Shown here: one piece after another, positions 3,283 to 24,563 of the stretch
Layout: every line of letters starts with the position of its first letter
Position numbering within the stretch: position 1 is the first letter of the stretch
Origin: a virus
Length of the DNA stretch: 31,657 bases
Reading direction: 5' to 3' (one strand)
IMG/VR virus record: IMGVR_UViG_3300009087_000006
Coordinates: 1 to 31,657 of that record
Translations under genes and position numbers: made by a program
The notes under the pieces: generated by a model
Told to the model about the DNA's origin: nothing
Databases searched by the model: none
What the model saw: only the letters and a program-made list of their open reading frames with translations

Positions 3283-3377
3283 AGGTCATTATGTAAGTAT
3301 GTAATTAGTATGGAAAGGATGATTTACAATTTGCTAATTAAATTTGATTTATTAAAACACTAACAAGGAGTTTAAGT

Positions 3378-3923
3378 ATGAAGACTTTTAATAAGAACAC
3401 AACGATTAAAGTTTCTGGTATTGTAATGCCTAACGGTAAAAACGCAGATGTTGATCTGGTAGATCCTCAAGGATACCGTGCTAATTTAAGCGGTAGACAG
3501 TTAGAAAAAGAGATTGCCACTATCTTGAAAAAGAAAGGTGCTTTTATTTCGTATTGGCGTTTGAAAGATAAAGTTAATGAGGAAAAGCACAATCACATTC
3601 TGTATAAGTGTGCCCCTTATATTTCTAATTGGGGGTGTAAGTGTCGTGGTGAGTTTGTTTTTAAGTCGAAGAAAATCGATGGTGCTGTTAGAATTGAAGC
3701 GAGAGCCCAGCATGTAGCTGGATCCGTAGATGAGAAGCTGAATTATCTTAAGGATAATTGTGGTGTATTTGAAGAGCCTAATGTTATCGTTGTATTAGAA
3801 GGAGACGGGTTTAGAAAGGAAGCTCGTCCTTGGTTTAAAAAGCAAATAAAGGCTATTTCTCATAAGAACGTCAGGGTGATGGATCTTAATGAGTTTGAAA
3901 CTTGGGTTAATGATAATATCTAA
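3378..3923 (+). CDS. Putative PD-(D/E)XK nuclease-like protein
   Basis: 181 aa. The central part reads KKIDGAVRIEARAQ followed by HVAGSVDEKLNYL, then a hydrophobic strand NVIVVLEGDGF and a C-terminal VRVMDLNEFETWV. This order (acidic residue D101, strand with E107, downstream Gln, a GS-x-DEKL helix, and a last beta strand before a helix) matches a set of restriction-endonuclease-like proteins of the PD-(D/E)XK superfamily as I remember them. The expected catalytic Lys is Arg109 or displaced, so activity is uncertain. An N-terminal helix with RQLEKEIATIL fits the first core helix. It follows the Dam-type methyltransferase and has AAGGAG before its ATG. Alternative: an inactive DNA-binding relative. 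Confidence 0.6.
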   Translation: MKTFNKNTTIKVSGIVMPNGKNADVDLVDPQGYRANLSGRQLEKEIATILKKKGAFISYWRLKDKVNEEKHNHILYKCAPYISNWGCKCRGEFVFKSKKIDGAVRIEARAQHVAGSVDEKLNYLKDNCGVFEEPNVIVVLEGDGFRKEARPWFKKQIKAISHKNVRVMDLNEFETWVNDNI

Positions 3924-4013
3924 TAATGATTAATTGTGTCTTCTCAAGAGGTTGATTATTCAGAGCCTATGGAACACACCCCATGTCATAAATGTGAGTA
4001 TAGAAACTATGAT

Positions 4014-4214
4014 CAGCCTTAGATCCGCAAACCACGAGCATCGCTCGTGGTTAGGCTAATTTTCCATACATAGTGACAATCACGGTATGGGATTTTGTAG
4101 TAAGGGTTTAAAAGCCTGGGCTCGGATGGAGCCTCGAACTAAAATCTGGAACTCACGCCGCAAGGCCGGAGATCTCCAGACTGGAATCATCGGGCGGCGC
4201 CTGATGAGCATCAA
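4014..4214 (+). mobile_element. Miniature IS200/IS605-type element carrying an omegaRNA-like end, no ORF
   Basis: The left end CAGCCTTAGA-CCGCAA matches the start of the full TnpB element at 8995. It is followed by a perfect 10-bp hairpin with a 3-nt loop (4030-4052). The right end 4116-4214 aligns over its whole length with 10120-10215 and finishes in the same GATGAGCATCAA. No transposase or TnpB frame remains, apart from a C-terminal relic readable as GLGWSLE...RLESSGGA. The segments between are unrelated to the big copy, so it derives from a diverged relative rather than from a recent internal deletion of the neighbour. Confidence 0.82.
4116..4214 (+). ncRNA. Putative omegaRNA scaffold in the miniature element
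   Basis: The predicted fold has three hairpins. Stem 1 is GGCTC/GAGCC. Stem 2 is TCTGGA/TCCAGA, enclosing the inner hairpin GCC-GCAA-GGC with a GNRA loop. Stem 3 is CATC/GATG, with inner GGC/GCC. Differences from the copy at 10120-10215 preserve pairing, as expected for a selected RNA. The guide would be the flanking sequence starting at 4215 (AGACTTATTGTAG). This is inferred from TnpB biology; no transcript is seen directly. Confidence 0.6.
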
Positions 4215-4294
4215 AGACTTATTGTAGACAAATGGGGAGGGTGTGCTTATTGGAAAGTAAGTATATTCTATAAAGACGATTTTTAAATCTTAGA

Positions 4295-4370
4295 ATTATA
4301 TAATAGTGTGGGCATTTTTGTTGGGGTGCGCTCTTTTATTAGTACACCTCAACAGCCAACACTATATAAT
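4295..4370. repeat. Large imperfect inverted repeat before tRNA-Gln
   Basis: The outer arms ATTATATA..GTGTGGGC (from 4295) and GCCAACACTATATAAT (4355-4370) are complementary except for a 3-nt bulge and one mismatch. An inner stem TTGGGGTG (4321-4328)/CACCTCAA (4345-4352) closes a 16-nt loop. There is no terminal T-tract, so it is not a normal terminator. The right arm reaches the first base of tRNA-Gln. It may be an RNA processing hairpin, a small structured RNA, or the relic of another element. Confidence 0.55.
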
Positions 4371-4450
4371 GGGGGGTTGTCTAATGGTAAGACACCAGCC
4401 TTTGAAGCTGGCTGCATATGCAATTACAGGTTCAAATCCTGTTCCCCCAG
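4370..4450 (+). tRNA. tRNA-Gln(UUG) with a long variable loop
   Basis: Acceptor TGGGGGG/TCCCCCA (one G-T), discriminator G as in Gln tRNAs, anticodon stem CCAGC/GCTGG with loop CTTTGAA (anticodon TTG), and T-arm ACAGG/CCTGT. The variable region is about 14 nt and contains the self-complementary TGCATATGCA, far longer than the usual 4-5 nt of a Gln tRNA. Confidence 0.9.
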
Positions 4451-4453
4451 AAT

Positions 4454-4524
4454 GGTCATGTAGCTTAAAGTAAAGCACCACCCTGTCACGGTGGTAAATG
4501 GCGGTTCAAATCCGCTCATGATCG
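4454..4524 (+). tRNA. tRNA-Asp(GUC)
   Basis: Acceptor GGTCATG/CATGATC (one wobble), anticodon stem CCACC/GGTGG with loop CTGTCAC (anticodon GTC), T-arm GCGG/CCGC with loop TTCAAAT, and discriminator G. No encoded CCA. Confidence 0.92.
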
Positions 4525-4530
4525 CAACAA

Positions 4531-4599
4531 GGGGGTGCTGACGGGTCAGATTTGTGCCTTGCAAGTACGAACTAGAGGGTTCAACTCCCTTCACCTCCA
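4531..4599 (+). tRNA. tRNA-Ala(UGC), reduced D-arm
   Basis: Acceptor GGGGGTG/CACCTCC (one wobble), anticodon loop CTTGCAA (TGC) on a stem rich in wobbles, T-arm GAGGG/CCCTT, discriminator A. Only 69 nt long: the D-arm folds as CTGA/TCAG with a 4-nt loop, and the usual bases 8-9 are absent. It may be poorly functional. Confidence 0.75.
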
Positions 4600-4604
4600 A
4601 ATAT

Positions 4605-4678
4605 AGGAGTGTAGCTCAGATGGTTAGAGCACCCGCCTGATAAGCGTGAGGTCGGAGGTTCAAGTCCCCCCATTCCTA
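4605..4678 (+). tRNA. tRNA-Ile(GAU)
   Basis: Acceptor AGGAGTG/CATTCCT (wobble), D-stem GCTC/GAGC, anticodon loop CTGATAA (anticodon GAT), T-arm GGAGG/CCCCC-like with loop TTCAAGT, discriminator A. No encoded CCA. Confidence 0.92.
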
Positions 4679-4688
4679 AATGTAAAAT

Positions 4689-4765
4689 ACTCTGATAGCT
4701 TAGAAGATTAAAGCGCCTCTCTTACAAGGAGGAGAACGGTGGTTTGACTCCATCTCAGAGTACCA
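4689..4765 (+). tRNA. tRNA-Val(UAC), CCA encoded
   Basis: Acceptor ACTCTGA/TCAGAGT is perfect. D-stem GCTT/AAGC, anticodon stem CCTCT/GGAGG with loop CTTACAA (anticodon TAC), T-arm GGTGG/CCATC, discriminator A followed by an encoded CCA (4763-4765). Confidence 0.93.
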
Positions 4766-4767
4766 TC

Positions 4768-4850
4768 GGAAGGTACCGCTAAATGGTAGGCAACTGGGTC
4801 TGAACCCCAGGGCACGGTAAAACGTGGGCGTTCGATTCGTCTACCTTCCA
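4768..4850 (+). tRNA. tRNA-Ser(UGA), C33 variant
   Basis: Class II tRNA. Acceptor GGAAGGT/ACCTTCC, anticodon stem CTGGG/CCCAG around loop TCTGAAC, variable arm CACG-GTAAAA-CGTG, discriminator A. The 7-nt loop places TGA at 34-36 and C at position 33 instead of U. The stem is identical to that of tRNA-Leu(CAA) at 658, so it may derive from a leucine tRNA, and its charging identity is uncertain. Confidence 0.75.
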
Positions 4851-4863
4851 AATAAAGATATAT

Positions 4864-4939
4864 GGTGATTGAAGGCAAACGGTGAGCCAGTGGTCTGTGA
4901 AACCATTTTTAGCGAGTTCGACTCTCGTCATTCACCCCA
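4864..4939 (+). tRNA. tRNA-His(GUG), CCA encoded
   Basis: It carries the His-specific extra 5' G (G-1) opposite C73. The acceptor GTGATTG/CATTCAC has one T-T mismatch. Anticodon stem GTGGT/ACCAT with loop CTGTGAA (anticodon GTG). T-arm GCGAG/CTCGT-like with loop TTCGACT. CCA is encoded at 4937-4939. Confidence 0.9.
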
Positions 4940-4972
4940 TTCAAGAAAAAAAAACAACGGAGGACAAAAGAT

Positions 4973-6043
4973 ATGAAGACTTTTTTTGCTACGATGATGG
5001 TGTTATTCATGTTGTCGTTTTCGTGTGTATATGGTTGTGGTTCTAAACCAGATATAACACCCCCTACGCCCGTTACACCACCCCCGGTTGTAACACCTGT
5101 TACACCGCCTGTTACACCACCTACTGTTACCGAAAGGGTAGAGTATGGTGAGTATAAAATAACAGGGTCTGAGGTAGACTTTTACTTTAAGAAGCCTATA
5201 GCAGAGTATGGTACCTTTAATTTGTTCATTGGTGGAAAAAAGATTGCCACCATCAAAGGGAATTATCTCAAAGGCAACATTGAGGTTAGAAACTCTAACA
5301 GTACAGGGAAGTTAGTTGTCATCACAGATTTAGTCTATAAAGGTAAAACTAGTCATATAATCTATAGTGATTCTGGTGCGCCGCCCCCTACTCCAGAGCC
5401 AGAACCAGAACCAACACCAGTCAATACAACCACAGAAAATGGGCAATATAGAATAACAGGAAGCGAGGTAGATTTTTATTATAGCAAACCCATTGCAACT
5501 TACGGAACTTTTACTTTGTATATTGCGGATAAAAAGATTGCTGAAATTAAAAGTAACTATAAAGTAGGAAATGTTGAAGTTAGAAACTCTAATAGTACTG
5601 GTAAAATGGTTGTTATCACAGATACAACATATAAAAATAAGACCAGCTATATTAAATATAATTCAGATGCAAGTGTGGAACCAACTCCCCCACCAACACC
5701 TCCATCTGATGAAGCCGAAGAGTCAAGAAGATTTGCCCATGCTAATCATATGAGTTGGAAGGGACAGGGGACTACTATCGTATTCTGCGCGGGGGACGAT
5801 GTAACCAGTGTGACTTTTCATGACACCCCGTTCCATTTTCACATGAAAGATGGATTGGACAAAGGACCTGGTAGAGAACAGTGGACTAACCACTATTTTC
5901 AGGGTAAGTCTGAGACAGGAACTGCTGGTTGGTTTGTCTGGGTAATCGGCGGGAAAAAATATAAATACTATTCCGATGGTAGAGGAGATGGCTTGAGTGA
6001 TTATGTAAAGCATACCGGCGACTGCTATCAAAAGTATAATTAG
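4973..6043 (+). CDS. Repeat-containing secreted lipoprotein
   Basis: 356 aa. A signal peptide ends in a lipobox-like VYGC with Cys22, so the protein is probably lipidated and anchored in the periplasm or outer membrane. A Pro/Thr-rich linker (24-52) is followed by repeat 1 (about 58-131), a Pro/Glu linker (136-150), repeat 2 (about 157-230), a second Pro linker, and a C-terminal domain of about 110 aa. Each repeat contains ITGSEVDFY, IA-YGTF, VEVRNSNSTGK and VVITD. The C-terminal domain is rich in His, Trp and Gly (FHDTPFHFHM). The strong site GGAGGA precedes the ATG. Likely roles are surface remodelling or superinfection exclusion, but only topology and repeats are seen; no family is recognised. 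Confidence 0.85.
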   Translation: MKTFFATMMVLFMLSFSCVYGCGSKPDITPPTPVTPPPVVTPVTPPVTPPTVTERVEYGEYKITGSEVDFYFKKPIAEYGTFNLFIGGKKIATIKGNYLKGNIEVRNSNSTGKLVVITDLVYKGKTSHIIYSDSGAPPPTPEPEPEPTPVNTTTENGQYRITGSEVDFYYSKPIATYGTFTLYIADKKIAEIKSNYKVGNVEVRNSNSTGKMVVITDTTYKNKTSYIKYNSDASVEPTPPPTPPSDEAEESRRFAHANHMSWKGQGTTIVFCAGDDVTSVTFHDTPFHFHMKDGLDKGPGREQWTNHYFQGKSETGTAGWFVWVIGGKKYKYYSDGRGDGLSDYVKHTGDCYQKYN

Positions 6044-8407: not shown

Positions 8408-9073
8408 ATGAAGCAGGTAGTGATTGATATTGATGGTATCTTGTGGAATATAGCACCATACTGGCACAAAGAGCTTATAAAAATAAACCCGGACTGCCCT
8501 TTTCCAGGGCTCACAACTTGGGAATTTTTTAAAAAGTATATGTCTTGGTCAGAAGCAGCCGCCGCTGTTACAAAAGTTCATATGAATCAAGACAAATATA
8601 AGCCTTTTAATAATGCAAATATACTTACAAGCAAGTTAAATGCGGCTGGGTATAAAACAATAATAGCTTCACACAGACACGAAGACTCTAGGGATGTTAC
8701 AGTTAGATGGCTTCGTAAAAACAATATTTATTTTGATAGTTTATATGTAGGAGCAGACAAGCATGTTTATTTAGAAGACAAAGACACTGTTTTGTTTATA
8801 GATGATTGTCCTGCTAGTCAAAAAATAGCAATAGATAAAGGTATTACTACAATGTCTATACGTTATCCATATAATGAGCATATGTATAATGTTATTTTTT
8901 ATGAAGATTTAGATCATTTAATTTCTGGTATAGATTTGTGGTTAGAACATCAGACTGGAAGGCATATAGGAAGGCGAGTTTCTTGCGCTTTGAACAGCCT
9001 TAGAACCGCAATCCCCGAACGGTGTTCGGGGTCAGGTTCTTGTAAAACACCACAAGTTAGGAATAGTTCTTGA
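8408..9073 (+). CDS. HAD-superfamily 5'(3')-deoxyribonucleotidase, C-terminus altered by an IS insertion
   Basis: 221 aa. HAD motif I is DIDGILW at residues 7-13 (nucleophile and acid/base aspartates), motif II is IIASHR (about 84-89), and motif IV is FIDDCP (about 137-142). The order and size fit the phage 5'(3')-deoxyribonucleotidase/HAD class, which removes the 5' phosphate from (deoxy)nucleotides. ATG with GGAG. From residue about 197 the coding sequence belongs to the left end of the TnpB element at 8995, so the last roughly 25 residues (with PERCSGSGSCKTPQ) are foreign. Joining the flanks gives CALNSTDQSGGVV and a stop inside tRNA-Leu. The catalytic core lies before the insertion, so activity may survive. 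Confidence 0.88.
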   Translation: MKQVVIDIDGILWNIAPYWHKELIKINPDCPFPGLTTWEFFKKYMSWSEAAAAVTKVHMNQDKYKPFNNANILTSKLNAAGYKTIIASHRHEDSRDVTVRWLRKNNIYFDSLYVGADKHVYLEDKDTVLFIDDCPASQKIAIDKGITTMSIRYPYNEHMYNVIFYEDLDHLISGIDLWLEHQTGRHIGRRVSCALNSLRTAIPERCSGSGSCKTPQVRNSS

Positions 9074-9098
9074 CTTTTACTTCTAAACAGGGTATAGT
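9070..9098 (+). promoter_or_regulatory. Promoter for tnpB, probably leaderless
   Basis: TTGACT (9070-9075), 17-bp spacer, TATAGT (9093-9098). The ATG of tnpB at 9105 falls 6-7 nt after the -10 box, where transcription would start, and no Shine-Dalgarno site fits in between. This suggests a leaderless mRNA. Confidence 0.65.
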
Positions 9099-9104
9099 GA
9101 TTAA

Positions 9105-10208
9105 ATGATAGTTAGGGAGCTCAAATTAAAATTGACCTCAAATCAGGTCTCCAAGTTAAACACTCAACTGTTTTATTTAACGGGGGTGTATAACTGGGCT
9201 GTGCGTACTATTGAGCTTAATGCTGTCAATAAAATCTACTACTCAAAGTTTGATTTCGTCAACTTGTTAGCTAACCACAGCAAAACTCTGGGAATTCCTT
9301 CTCATACATTGCAGGGAATTTTAGAGCAGGCTTTTATAGCCTGGCAGAGATGTTTCAAAAAGCTTGCTAAGAAGCCCAGGCTTAAGTCTGTTAGGAATAA
9401 GTTGAATTCAATACCTTTTCCTGATGCAATTTCTGGCACAAGGATCACGGATAAAACTATTGGAATTCCTGGGTTGGGTCAAGTTAGATTTTACAAACAA
9501 GATCTTCCCAAAGGTAAAGTTAAGTGTGCCCGAGCAGTACGAAGAGCCTCTGGTTGGTATCTTCAGCTTTCCATAGATGCTCAGCACCACTTCCCCATTA
9601 AGGAAACTTTTGATAAGGTAGGCATCGACACAGGGTTTAAGCATTTGGCTGTTCTATCCAACGGTACTAAGTTTGAAAACCAGCGCAATTTTATTAAAGG
9701 ACAGAAGCGCTTAGCTCAGGCACAACGTGGCAGCAATAAAAAGCTTGTCGCCCGGCTGCATGAGCGTACCAAGAACAGACGGAAAGATTATAATCACAAG
9801 ATTTCCAGGCAAATAGTTGAAGCTTTTCAAGAGATTTACATCACTAATGATAACTTGCAAAGTCAATCTAAAATGTTCGGTAAATCAGTACACGACGCAG
9901 GGATCAATCAACTAAAACAATTCATTTTATACAAGGGTGACACTCACGGTAGAAAATGTGTTTTAGTTGATTCAAAAAACACCACCATGACCTGTTCAAA
10001 CTGTGGAATTTTAAGTGGTCCCACAGGATTGATCGGGCTTGTTGTAAGGAACTGGGAATGCAGTGCTTGTGGGGCACAACATGATCGCGATATCAACGCG
10101 GCTAAAGTAATTCTCAATACTGGGCTCGGATGGAGCCTCGAAAACACTGAAACTCACGCTGTAAAGCCGGAGATTTTCAGACTGGAATCGTCGGGCGGCG
10201 CCCGATGA
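9105..10208 (+). CDS. tnpB: TnpB RNA-guided endonuclease (OrfB family)
   Basis: 367 aa, usual size for compact TnpB. It is the presumed RNA-guided DNA nuclease of IS200/IS605 elements, guided by an omegaRNA made from the right end. N-terminal OrfB helix-turn region at 1-100; RuvC-I GIDTGFKHLAV with Asp175; RuvC-II region YITNDNLQ with Asp249 where most TnpBs have Glu in an EDL motif; zinc finger CSNC...CSAC (Cys297, 300, 319, 322); RuvC-III DRDINAA with Asp329. The Asp at RuvC-II resembles a subgroup reading GDV/NDN followed by a K-SV-DAG helix, so loss of activity should not be assumed. The 3' end overlaps the omegaRNA. AT content and codon use are mildly different from its neighbours (more GC). 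Confidence 0.95.
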   Translation: MIVRELKLKLTSNQVSKLNTQLFYLTGVYNWAVRTIELNAVNKIYYSKFDFVNLLANHSKTLGIPSHTLQGILEQAFIAWQRCFKKLAKKPRLKSVRNKLNSIPFPDAISGTRITDKTIGIPGLGQVRFYKQDLPKGKVKCARAVRRASGWYLQLSIDAQHHFPIKETFDKVGIDTGFKHLAVLSNGTKFENQRNFIKGQKRLAQAQRGSNKKLVARLHERTKNRRKDYNHKISRQIVEAFQEIYITNDNLQSQSKMFGKSVHDAGINQLKQFILYKGDTHGRKCVLVDSKNTTMTCSNCGILSGPTGLIGLVVRNWECSACGAQHDRDINAAKVILNTGLGWSLENTETHAVKPEIFRLESSGGAR

Positions 10209-10215
10209 GCATCAA
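10120..10215 (+). ncRNA. Putative omegaRNA overlapping the 3' end of tnpB
   Basis: Stem 1 is GGCTC/GAGCC. Stem 2 is CTGAA/TTCAG, enclosing GCT-GTAA-AGC (GNRA loop). Stem 3 is CGTC/GATG, with inner GGGC/GCCC. The scaffold ends CATCAA, and the guide would be the flank CAGTACAGATCAATC. Its position at the right end overlapping tnpB is the known arrangement for TnpB omegaRNAs. Transcription is inferred. Confidence 0.65.
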
Positions 10216-10231
10216 CAGTACAGATCAATCA

Positions 10232-20951: not shown

Positions 20952-21469
20952 TGGCTTTAAGTCCAGGTCGTCCAAGAAACCCACCAACACCCCGCCAGTT
21001 ACTGAAGGATATAATCCCCGTAAATGATCTGTTTAAGGAAGATGAGGTAGTTTTATATACTTCCTTTATAGATTATTATCTTAATGATTTCAAAGATGAT
21101 GATTTGTCTGCAAGCGATCTAGATGATATTGCAAGTTTAGCTACCAACAAGGTAATGGAACTTCGTTTACTAAAAGACAGTAAAAATAGTACAGCCAAAC
21201 AAAGTACTGTATCCACATCTTTAGAGAAAATTCGTAAACACAATGAAGCTTTGAAAACAGGACTATCTTCAAGAAGAAAGGATAGGATAGATCCACATGA
21301 ATATAAAGGGTTTTCTATTGTGGATCTTGCAATTGCTTTTGATGAGGAGCGTAGGCATAAACTAGACAATAAGTCCGTGGATATTAGAAAGCAGGCAAGT
21401 GAAGCGGCTAAGCTTATAAGAAGCTATGGAAATAAGGACGATATAGACGGAGAGCAGGGTGTCGAGTAG
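20951..21469 (+). CDS. Putative terminase small subunit
   Basis: 172 aa, directly before TerL with an 11-nt overlap, ATG coupled to the previous stop (TAATG). The N-terminus is PRNPPTPRQLLKDIIPVNDL. The middle is helical and acidic, with SASDLDDIASLATNKVMELRLL. The C-terminal part (SIVDLAIAFDEERRHKLDNKSVDIRKQASEAAKLI) is a predicted helical domain similar in layout to small subunits that bind packaging DNA. I cannot match a Pfam with certainty. Either this or the preceding NUMOD3-like gene is the recogniser. Confidence 0.7.
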   Translation: MALSPGRPRNPPTPRQLLKDIIPVNDLFKEDEVVLYTSFIDYYLNDFKDDDLSASDLDDIASLATNKVMELRLLKDSKNSTAKQSTVSTSLEKIRKHNEALKTGLSSRRKDRIDPHEYKGFSIVDLAIAFDEERRHKLDNKSVDIRKQASEAAKLIRSYGNKDDIDGEQGVE

Positions 21470-24400
21470 ATTATCTAAAAATAAAGATCTTATTCTGAGT
21501 CAGGGAACTCAGATGATTGATTTTTATCGTAAGAACCCTGTAATAGCAGCCTATGATTTGTTAGGGGTTGATTTGGCTCCTATACAGGCAATGATTCTAG
21601 AGGACATGTGGTTTAAAAGTTACGTTGTTACGGTAACGTCCCGTGGTCTAGGAAAAACGTTTATAGCCGCTGTACTTGCAGTTCTTAGTACTCTTTTATA
21701 TCCTGGGTATAGGGTGGGTTTAATATCTTCGTCTTTTAGACAGTGTTTTATTAATAATCCTAATGGTATTCATACTTTCTTTACTTCAGAAGGGCTATAC
21801 TCTTCTACAGATTCTTTTTATGAATCTATTACATGTAATAGATCTCATGTTCAATCCTTAAAGCATACTAATGTTGTCTTGAATAAATGGAAAAACAATC
21901 CTCGTCTTTGTAGGACAATAAAGACTACCAAGGGACTAGAGTTAGGTGGTACAATAGATCATAGAATACTAACCCTATCTGCTGGTTTTTCGTTGACTTA
22001 TAAGGAGCTAAAAGACATAGACGAGGAAACCACTATAGTCATAAGAAAAGGATTTAACTTTTTTGGTAATAATATAAGTTTACCTCAATTAGAGTATACT
22101 GACCATTGGGCAACCAAACCTTGTTGCATACCAAAAACCTTAACACCAGATTTATCTTATTTATTAGGACTTATTGTAGGGGATGGGCATATTACAACCA
22201 AATCGTCATATCAAGTAGGGTTTACAAGCTCTGACCCAGAGTTGGTAGATAGGTTTATACATTTAATGTTTAGTGAGTTTGGTTTAAGTAAACATTATAT
22301 ACAAATAAAGACAGGTAACTGTGTTACTATTACTTATACATCTAAAACAGTGTGTGTTTTTTTATTAGGAGTAGGTCTTACAGACACAACCGCCTTAGAT
22401 AAGAAGTTTCCTTTTATTATAAATAGAGCTCCAAAGGACTGTATTTTATCTTTTATATCTGCTTTGTTAGACACAGACGGATGCTGTTATACACAAAGCA
22501 AATGTAATACCTGTACTGTTGATCTTGCCACATCGTCTATTAGACTTGCAAAAGAATATCAAGCTCATTTGTTAAATTTGGGTATTTTAGCTGGTTTGTG
22601 TGTGTCAAAAAAAGCAGAACGTAGACAACTAGTCACCAGAACTAATGGACTTTCAGACTGCGCGGAAGCGTATAAAGTTAGAATTACTGGAATTAAAGAT
22701 TTAATATTATTTAGCAAGGTAATTGGCTTTAAATTACATAGGAAACAAAATAAGTTGAATAATTATCTACTGGAGAATAAACCATACTCTACTTCGGATA
22801 AAATACCTTATTCAGAAAAATACTGTCTTACTTTAATATCAGAATTAAGACCTTTATTAAAACGTGGAACTCCTGATTTAAAGTTTATAGGTATGCTTAA
22901 AAATAATACAACTAAAACTAAAACAGGAGTAACTAGATGGCGATTAGAGAAGCTTATACATATAGCGGATAAGTATAATGTTTCGACTGAGTCCTACTGT
23001 AGATTGAAAGATATTATTTCTAAAGATCTTGCTTTTGTTAAGCCCGTATCTTTTATTACTTCTATGGAGGAGACAATAGACATAGAGGTGGCATCTGAAC
23101 ATTGTTATTGGGCTTCCGGTTTCATTCACCACAACTCTAAACTTATTTTTGCAGAAGTAGAAAAGCTTTACGGGCAATCCAGTATTTTACAAGAAGCCTG
23201 TGAGAAGAGACCAATTCGAGGGGCTGACCTTTGTTATTTACAATTCAAAGGTGCCAAAGGACAGCATGGATCTTATATAGAAGCCCTTCCTATAGGAAAT
23301 GACGGAGCTAAGATTAGAGGTTCTCGTTTTTACTTATTAATTATGGATGAGTTTGCTCAGATTCCTAAAAAAATTATAGATAACGTATTAACTCCTATGG
23401 CAGTGACCAAACTAAATCCAATGAAGCGGGTTAGGGATTTAGAAGTAAAAAAGAGACTTATAGCGCAGGGATTGGCAGTAGAATCAGACTTTGAAGAGGA
23501 AACTCTTAACAAGTTGGTGGCGGTTTCTTCCGGGTACTACAAATTCAATCATATGTATAGACGTATGCGTGAATATTGGAAGTTGATGGATCTTGGATCT
23601 GAACACCACGTCGTTCATCAAGTACCATATACCGCTCTCCCTGATGGATTTTTAGATAAGGAAAATATAGATAATGCCAGAAGAACTATGTCTGATTATG
23701 AGTTCAGAATGGAATACATGGCAGATATGGTTAGTGATTCAGATGGATTTTTTAAAGCATCTTTACTTTTAGGTTGTTCTGAGGGTAGTGGTTTTTATGT
23801 AGAGGATATGGGGGTATCTGGGGCAAGTTATATAATAGGAGTAGATCCAAACCAGGGGGGTAGAGCTAAATGTGGATTTGTCGTAATCAAGCTGGGAACC
23901 GTATGTAAAGTAGTGCAGGTATTTGAGTTTGAAGGGCATAAAACTCAAGACATTGTGAAAAGAGTACAGAGGCTGTGTAAGGAGTTTAATGTCTCTAGGA
24001 TTTTTATGGATAGAGGTGGCGGAGGAAAAGCTATAAGTGATTTACTTGCAGAGGGATATGGAGGGGAAGAGCCTATTATTGATATTTTGGAAAAATCCTA
24101 TGAAAAGCTGCAAGGTAGAAGAATACTAGAAGCCGTTCCTTCTAACCCAGGGTGGGTGGCAGAGGCTAACTTTGCTACACTCGCTTTGTTGGAAGCTAAA
24201 GGTATTTTATTTCCAGAGCCTCCTCTAGAGGCAATAAAAGAAGAGACAGAAGATGCTTATAATAGTGTAGAGCTTTTGAAAAAGCAATGTTTAAATATTG
24301 TGATCACAGAGACTTCTTCCGGGGTGTTACATTTTGATACTCCTAAAAAAGGACAAAACAAAGATCTATATTCAGCATTTGTTCTAGCTTGTTGGGGGGC

Positions 24401-24563
24401 AAAGAAAGTACTAAAACCGGTGGTCGAAGAAGACTTTCAAATATTACACGGAAGTTCCGGATTAATTAGAATGAAGGAAGGTGCTTGGATGCCTGTGTCT
24501 GGGAAATCTGTTGTTGCTAATGCAGACTTACAAGCAGCCGTCCTTAAGAGAAAAATAAACTAA
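21459..24563 (+). CDS. Terminase large subunit, interrupted by an intein
   Basis: 1034-aa precursor, 570 aa after splicing, normal for a TerL. Extein: Walker A TSRGLGKT (60-67), a motor motif in LISSSFRQ|SKLIF, Walker B LLIMDEFAQ, and nuclease acidic residues in GVDPNQGG, FMDRGGGG and GQNKDLYSAF. It packages DNA into the prohead and cuts it to length. The GTG start overlaps the upstream gene by 11 nt. The intein occupies residues 96-559. The intein sits between Walker A and Walker B, so the precursor cannot be an active motor until it is spliced. Confidence 0.97.
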   Translation: MSSRLSKNKDLILSQGTQMIDFYRKNPVIAAYDLLGVDLAPIQAMILEDMWFKSYVVTVTSRGLGKTFIAAVLAVLSTLLYPGYRVGLISSSFRQCFINNPNGIHTFFTSEGLYSSTDSFYESITCNRSHVQSLKHTNVVLNKWKNNPRLCRTIKTTKGLELGGTIDHRILTLSAGFSLTYKELKDIDEETTIVIRKGFNFFGNNISLPQLEYTDHWATKPCCIPKTLTPDLSYLLGLIVGDGHITTKSSYQVGFTSSDPELVDRFIHLMFSEFGLSKHYIQIKTGNCVTITYTSKTVCVFLLGVGLTDTTALDKKFPFIINRAPKDCILSFISALLDTDGCCYTQSKCNTCTVDLATSSIRLAKEYQAHLLNLGILAGLCVSKKAERRQLVTRTNGLSDCAEAYKVRITGIKDLILFSKVIGFKLHRKQNKLNNYLLENKPYSTSDKIPYSEKYCLTLISELRPLLKRGTPDLKFIGMLKNNTTKTKTGVTRWRLEKLIHIADKYNVSTESYCRLKDIISKDLAFVKPVSFITSMEETIDIEVASEHCYWASGFIHHNSKLIFAEVEKLYGQSSILQEACEKRPIRGADLCYLQFKGAKGQHGSYIEALPIGNDGAKIRGSRFYLLIMDEFAQIPKKIIDNVLTPMAVTKLNPMKRVRDLEVKKRLIAQGLAVESDFEEETLNKLVAVSSGYYKFNHMYRRMREYWKLMDLGSEHHVVHQVPYTALPDGFLDKENIDNARRTMSDYEFRMEYMADMVSDSDGFFKASLLLGCSEGSGFYVEDMGVSGASYIIGVDPNQGGRAKCGFVVIKLGTVCKVVQVFEFEGHKTQDIVKRVQRLCKEFNVSRIFMDRGGGGKAISDLLAEGYGGEEPIIDILEKSYEKLQGRRILEAVPSNPGWVAEANFATLALLEAKGILFPEPPLEAIKEETEDAYNSVELLKKQCLNIVITETSSGVLHFDTPKKGQNKDLYSAFVLACWGAKKVLKPVVEEDFQILHGSSGLIRMKEGAWMPVSGKSVVANADLQAAVLKRKIN
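21744..23135 (+). mobile_element. Intein with LAGLIDADG (DOD) endonuclease inside terminase
   Basis: 464 aa. The first residue is Cys96, block B contains TIDHRIL, and the splice end is SGFIHHN with penultimate His558 and Asn559, followed by Ser as the +1 extein residue. DOD endonuclease motifs are LLGLIVGDG (233-241) and SALLDTDGC. The flanking extein SSSFRQ/SKLIF is continuous. Expected splicing chemistry: Cys1, Asn-final, Ser+1, fully compatible. The gap of about 65 residues before block B is slightly long for an intein N-terminus. Confidence 0.95.

What the first reader, a model, noticed from the sequence alone, without database searches (positions are those of the whole stretch)
4014..4214. 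omegaRNA-only miniature of a TnpB element
The 201-bp element has the left-end start, a left hairpin and a complete right end shared with the full TnpB element 5 kb away, but no ORF. Its right end could be a guide-carrying RNA used in trans by the TnpB at 9105. Standalone guide RNA satellites of TnpB would be like CRISPR-type guide arrays of a selfish nuclease. The guide would be AGACTTATTGTAG..., the right flank of its own insertion site, that is, the empty allele.
Basis: partly seen in the sequence, partly recalled or inferred. Interest (0 to 1): 0.9.

Follow-up and report, generated by a model that had tools for sequence, protein, structure and literature searches.

The report
Miniature transposon keeping TnpB's guide RNA
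A 201-base mobile-element remnant in a phage genome has lost its nuclease gene but still encodes a complete-looking guide RNA that matches the TnpB nuclease of a larger sister element 5 kb away; the anatomy is real, but whether the RNA is made and used is untested.

Summary
Window 4014-4214 has the left end, a left hairpin and the whole right end of an IS200/IS605 element, and no gene. Its sister, 8995-10215, carries a 367-aa TnpB. The 98 nt at 4117-4214 are a complete minimal TnpB guide-RNA (omegaRNA) core: stem 1, the pseudoknot between the stem-1 loop (GATG, 4125-4128) and the 3' end (CATC, 4209-4212), stem 3 and the right-end hairpin. Stem 1 and the pseudoknot covary strongly across 18 relatives. 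Small and full cores are 89.5% identical; none of their ten substitutions breaks a pair. Homology with the full element stops where stem 1 starts. So the element is a non-autonomous 'PATE' with a cognate, structurally intact omegaRNA. Use in trans by the phage's TnpB is plausible but unproven. Against it: no promoter inside the element, a left flank (TATGAT) unlike the TGAA at the other 14 sites, and passive retention explains most of the anatomy. At least three other phage miniatures keep both ends and the core, one with a different TnpB lineage. PATEs with this layout are already described. There is no guide array. New member of a known kind, unusual for sharing a phage genome with its cognate TnpB.

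The parts
4008..4013 (+). Left flank / presumed target-TAM TATGAT of the small element
   Evidence: sequence; other sites end TGAA
4014..4050 (+). Left end (LE) of small element, with hairpin 4032-4050
   Evidence: shared start with full element and relatives L005, L054, L060, L062
4051..4116 (+). Middle segment of unknown origin; no match to any held locus
   Evidence: blastn, no hit at E<=0.5; no ungapped similarity to the full element upstream of the core
4117..4214 (+). Predicted omegaRNA core: stem 1 (4119-4123/4129-4133), stem 3 (4145-4150/4175-4180 with inner pairs), right-end hairpin (4189-4195/4199-4205), pseudoknot 4125-4128 with 4209-4212; also the right end (RE) of the element
   Evidence: covariation in 18 relatives, folds, pair-preserving changes against the full copy, covariance model hit E 2.5e-22 (this sequence is in the model's seed)
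4215..4230 (+). Predicted 16-nt guide AGACTTATTGTAGACA (right flank)
   Evidence: position by TnpB rule (PMC8612924); inference
3930..4013 (+). 5' part of a small ORF that appears interrupted by the element (continues 4215-4283)
   Evidence: joined flanks give an open 51-codon frame with CxxC; no homologue found
8995..10215 (+). Full TnpB element (LE CAGCCTTAGAACCGCAA..., RE ...GATGAGCATCAA), left flank TTTGAA
9070..9098 (+). Sigma-70-like promoter TTGACT-17-TATAGT in front of tnpB; absent from the small element
9105..10208 (+). TnpB, 367 aa; RuvC-I D175, RuvC-II D249 (no canonical Glu), RuvC-III D329; disordered tail 347-367 coincides with the omegaRNA-coding part
10121..10215 (+). Cognate omegaRNA core of the full element
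10216..10231 (+). Predicted guide of full element CAGTACAGATCAATCA
   Evidence: inference from the TnpB rule

Best explanation
The feature is a non-autonomous IS200/IS605 element (a PATE) that lost tnpA and tnpB but kept the two ends a Y1 transposase needs and, inside the right end, a complete omegaRNA core of the type used by the phage's own TnpB. Shown by sequence: the ends, the absence of genes, the intact and covarying omegaRNA fold, and kinship to the neighbouring copy. Inferred: it moved by a TnpA acting in trans; the + strand is transcribed by read-through of the surrounding + strand phage genes and tRNAs; TnpB trims the 5' end at stem 1 and loads the RNA with the flank AGACTTATTGTAGACA as guide; the complex would then cut the element-free allele of this locus, favouring retention or spread of the miniature among co-infecting phages if the TAM ATGAT is tolerated. 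My estimates: identity as PATE 0.95; RNA structurally competent 0.75; TnpB loads it in infected cells about 0.45; it cuts the empty site in practice about 0.3.
For: Stem 1 and the stem-1-loop/3'-end pseudoknot: 98.1% of 162 cells paired across 18 relatives, against 71.0 +/- 2.6% in shuffles and at most 44% when slid; covariation score 0.681 against 0.160. Pseudoknot 4-mers pair with their own partner in 15 of 18 relatives but in only 25 of 254 cross-class combinations. In ISDra2 the same pseudoknot and stem 1 define the functional core, and removing everything 5' of stem 1 leaves activity intact (PMC10097598). Of ten substitutions between small and full cores six fall in pairs, including two double compensations, and none breaks a pair (null P about 0.017). 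Homology to the full copy ends where stem 1 begins. The full copy is the closest core over the full 95 aligned columns, 89.5% against 74.7-77.9%, and alone among the seven phage cores shares its exact stem-1/loop sequence. Other miniatures with both ends keep the core: L049 (312 nt), L060 (293 nt, another TnpB lineage), L005 (480 nt). TnpB and omegaRNA supplied separately are active in vitro (PMC10278001). The local TnpB is intact and folds like ISDra2 and ISFba1 TnpB.
Against: No + strand promoter in the small element, and the LE promoter of the family is lost. Left flank is TATGAT while 14 of 15 sites end TGAA; characterised TAMs show little degeneracy (PMC10278001). Retention of about 98 nt upstream of the right edge is also what most random internal deletions would leave. 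Many of the pair-preserving changes may predate loss of tnpB and cannot be assigned to the small lineage. The pairs were chosen from these sequences, so the P value is optimistic. No empty-site homologue was found, no TnpA is known in the window, and the record is a fragment.
Confidence: 0.55

Rival explanations
1. Passive relic: an ordinary PATE or decayed deletion derivative. The right end must be kept for the transposase, and the omegaRNA sequence came along without being used.
For: The 3' half of the omegaRNA is also the TnpA-recognised right end; deletion derivatives are common in this family; no promoter; odd TAM; possible weakening of the outer LE stem (GATCC against GGCTA). Right-end-only scraps that cannot serve as full omegaRNA also exist (L047, L052).
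Against: Stem 1, its loop and stem 3 lie outside the right-end hairpin yet stay intact, with homology ending at the core's 5' edge.
Confidence: 0.37
2. Competitor or sponge: the RNA is made and loaded but, because its TAM context is poor, mainly titrates TnpB away from the full element's guide.
For: Intact core with non-consensus TAM.
Against: No evidence of expression; nothing suggests selection for titration.
Confidence: 0.05
3. TnpB here is a nuclease-dead, TldR-like regulator and the small RNA directs repression rather than cutting.
For: No canonical RuvC-II glutamate in P0001.
Against: The lineage keeps an invariant Asp (D249 column) plus RuvC-I and RuvC-III Asp in members next to TnpA in mobile elements; one rearranged-RuvC-II TnpB is an active nuclease (PMC10278001); the guide matches only the insertion flank.
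Confidence: 0.03

Closest known systems
PATE-like element of Halanaerobium hydrogeniformans (PMC7290912, section 3.8)
   Same: Ends-only IS605 derivative, about 271 nt: LE hairpin, no tnpA, last 58 nt of tnpB, complete RE
   Different: Bacterial chromosome; omegaRNA content was not considered there; here the element sits in a phage with a cognate TnpB 5 kb away and the RNA fold was tested
ISDra2 TnpB-omegaRNA (reRNA) of Deinococcus radiodurans (PMC8612924, PMC10097598)
   Same: omegaRNA in 3' end of tnpB plus RE; stem 1 and pseudoknot to the 3' end; guide from the right flank; TTGAT-like target
   Different: Here the RNA is separated from tnpB; shorter core (98 nt, some relatives 59 nt); TAM consensus TGAA; RuvC-II glutamate replaced
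Standalone, trans-acting omegaRNAs proposed for IscB (Altae-Tran 2021) and PATEs in Geobacillus (Meers 2023); recalled from memory, papers not held
   Same: Guide RNA loci without the nuclease gene next to them
   Different: IscB or other lineages, bacterial genomes; not checked here
Phage TldR RNA-guided repressors
   Same: Phage-encoded TnpB relative with guide RNA
   Different: No sign of regulatory targeting; mobile ends retained; RuvC Asp residues conserved

Membership tests
IS200/IS605 PATE (ends-only element) | LE and RE of an IS200/IS605 element without tnpA or tnpB | tested here: met
IS200/IS605 PATE (ends-only element) | Subterminal hairpins at both ends and RE ending TCAA | tested here: met
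   4032-4050 and 4189-4205; RE ends CATCAA
IS200/IS605 PATE (ends-only element) | Insertion 3' of the family target motif without duplication | tested here: inconclusive
   TATGAT left flank; 14 of 15 sites of the family end TGAA; empty site not found
IS200/IS605 PATE (ends-only element) | Mobilised in trans by Y1 TnpA | not testable with these tools
   TnpA found in records of relatives with the same ends, none known for this phage fragment
TnpB omegaRNA (reRNA) | Stem 1 and pseudoknot between the stem-1 loop and the 3' end | tested here: met
TnpB omegaRNA (reRNA) | Cognate TnpB available | tested here: met
   P0001 in the same record, closest core; cognate by sequence only
TnpB omegaRNA (reRNA) | Transcribed and bound by TnpB with a flank-derived guide | not testable with these tools
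   needs RNA from infected cells
Active TnpB nuclease | RuvC D-E-D triad | tested here: not met
   D175 and D329 present; Glu position is T/S/N with invariant D249; rearranged RuvC-II types can be active (PMC10278001)
CRISPR-like guide array | Several repeated guide units | tested here: not met
   only one standalone copy in the window

The most novel reading that the evidence does not exclude
The miniature is a guide-RNA satellite: a standalone omegaRNA that parasitises the phage's TnpB in trans, so that one nuclease drives the retention and spread of several nuclease-less copies at different sites of phage genomes. At least three other phage miniatures that keep both ends and the core would be further cases.
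Probability: 0.25. Interest if true: 0.75.

Novelty: new member of a known kind. Interest (0 to 1): 0.42.

Why it matters
If TnpB can be programmed in trans by nuclease-less miniatures, RNA-guided homing of transposons would work as a two-part system like transposase and MITE, and PATE counts would reveal guide repertoires. The phage setting, with nuclease and miniature in one genome and a defined empty site, makes this directly testable. If not, it is a tidy example of an ordinary PATE whose right end happens to contain the guide-RNA scaffold.

Tried and rejected
Nucleotide search of phage records for the small element: none. Exact right-end pattern from the window: none; a relaxed one gave 12 loci. 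Empty allele or homologues of the interrupted ORF and of the upstream gene: none in viral contigs. Similarity of 3300-5000 in phage records: the best hits listed are only tRNA genes. Second targets of the guide: only 3-mismatch hits, not clearly more than chance (11 listed, several of them overlapping copies of the same locus; about 4 expected) and none preceded by the target motif. Origin of 4051-4116: no match. Idea that core retention in miniatures proves selection: rejected, most random internal deletions would keep it. Idea that TnpB is dead because it lacks the RuvC-II glutamate: not adopted, since the alternative Asp is invariant in mobile relatives. Literature for trans-used omegaRNAs of PATEs: none in the held library; the key Nature, Science and PNAS papers are not held.

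Full report
What is there. The window is a 31.7-kb virus fragment rich in tRNA genes. A 201-nt element (4014-4214) and a 1,221-nt element (8995-10215) share their left start and right end. The large one encodes one protein, a TnpB of 367 aa (NCBIfam guided_TnpB E 5e-62; Pfam OrfB_IS605 and Cas12f1-like_TNB) whose model resembles ISFba1 and ISDra2 TnpB. The small one has no ORF of 60 aa or more. Relatives in IMG/VR and bacterial genomes fix the boundaries: elements start CAG..TTAG..CCGCAA (phage group) and end ..TCAA, 3' of a target ending TGAA at 14 of 15 sites; the small element is the exception with TATGAT. The small copy also differs from the others in the LE sequence next to the hairpin (GCAAAC for GCAATC), possibly a matched change in target choice (inference).

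The right end is a whole omegaRNA core. Published work on ISDra2 shows that the functional omegaRNA starts at stem 1 and that bases in the stem-1 loop pair with the last bases before the guide (PMC10097598). The same architecture appears here: stem 1 GGCTC/GAGCC at 4119-4133, loop GATG pairing with CATC at 4209-4212. In an alignment of 18 relatives these nine pairs are kept in 98.1% of cells, against 71% in shuffles and 33-44% for slid partners; six of nine pairs change on both sides. The pseudoknot classes GATG/CATC, GATA/TATC, GAAC/GTTC, GAGC/GCTC, GATC/GATC and GAAT/ATTC match mostly within class (15 of 18 own, 25 of 254 crossed); the three exceptions share a GTGC loop. Small and full cores fold alike. 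Their ten substitutions include two double compensations (in stem 3) and two one-sided changes that keep a pair; none breaks one of 27 pairs. Random placement gives that in 1.7% of trials, an optimistic figure because the pairs were read from these sequences and some changes may predate the loss of tnpB.

Kinship. Over the full core the small element is nearest to the full element of the same phage (89.5%; next 77.9%; three relatives that lack stem 3 can be compared over 59 nt only and score 84.7-89.8%) and alone among the seven phage cores compared shares its exact stem-1/loop sequence. Similarity to the full copy stops at the 5' edge of stem 1; 4051-4116 matches nothing held. A break within 3 nt of that edge would occur in about 0.7% of uniformly placed breakpoints, suggestive of, but not proof for, conservation of exactly the omegaRNA. 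In TnpB itself the overlapping tail (347-367) has very low model confidence, as expected of a disordered tail and as in ISDra2, so this stretch is free to serve as RNA.

Context. The small element seems to interrupt a short ORF: joined flanks keep a 51-codon frame open, but no homologue was found and a frame of this length can be open by chance. It lies on the strand of its neighbouring genes and tRNAs. It has lost the LE promoter that the full copy keeps (TTGACT-17-TATAGT), so transcription would be read-through.

Other miniatures. L049 (312 nt, with a TnpA remnant by eye), L060 (293 nt) and L005 (480 nt, truncated tnpB) have both ends and an omegaRNA core; L060 belongs to another TnpB lineage (L045/L053/L062) that shares the same terminal 40 nt and shows its own compensatory stem-1 change. 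Among the records searched only the window shows a full TnpB element together with a separate miniature that has both ends and a core, though all are fragments.

Mechanism and verdict. Ordinary part: a PATE, as described in Halanaerobium with the same layout (PMC7290912). Inferred part: TnpB processes omegaRNA 5' ends itself and works with separately supplied RNA in vitro (PMC10278001), so an intact cognate core with a flank guide could be used in trans against the empty site. The lack of a promoter, the unusual TAM and the absence of expression data keep this open. The TnpB lacks the canonical RuvC-II glutamate but has an invariant Asp two residues on throughout a lineage that includes TnpA-bearing elements, and a rearranged-RuvC-II TnpB is known to cut, so I treat it as probably active. 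The array analogy is not supported.

Noticed in passing
RE 4201-4214 and 10202-10215; L005, L054, L019, L024, L003: The right end ends ATGAGCATCAA (or ATGGGNNNTCAA), with the tnpB stop overlapping an ATG. When the element sits after ATGAA at a gene start, the RE re-supplies a start codon in frame (L005: MKIKGIKYVG becomes MSIKIKGIKYVG; L019 a methyltransferase-like start; L024 a metallophosphatase-like start). Looks like a harm-reducing trick worth its own study.
   Followed up: partly
L051 1893-2883 (- strand), contig IMGVR_UViG_3300034152_000827: The same LE and RE flank a TnpA-like ORF and an HNH endonuclease instead of TnpB.
   Followed up: partly
9105-10208 and relatives L019-L041: TnpB lineage without the canonical RuvC-II Glu; invariant Asp in xxDN motif, present in TnpA-bearing elements of several phyla.
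   Followed up: partly
10050-10105 region and relatives: Further hairpins in the tnpB zinc-finger and DRDxN codons look covarying upstream of stem 1 (by eye).
   Followed up: no
L006/L018 and L015 (G001 58.7-60.1 kb): Two related records carry an LE plus the first about 30 codons of tnpB joined to a different TnpB-like C-terminus at the same junction.
   Followed up: no
window 21459-24563: Terminase large subunit ORF of 1034 aa with endonuclease-like match at 227-366, probably an intein.
   Followed up: no
L047, L052: Only the last ~40 nt of the RE remain, fused to short phage ORFs and again giving the next gene an ATG.
   Followed up: no
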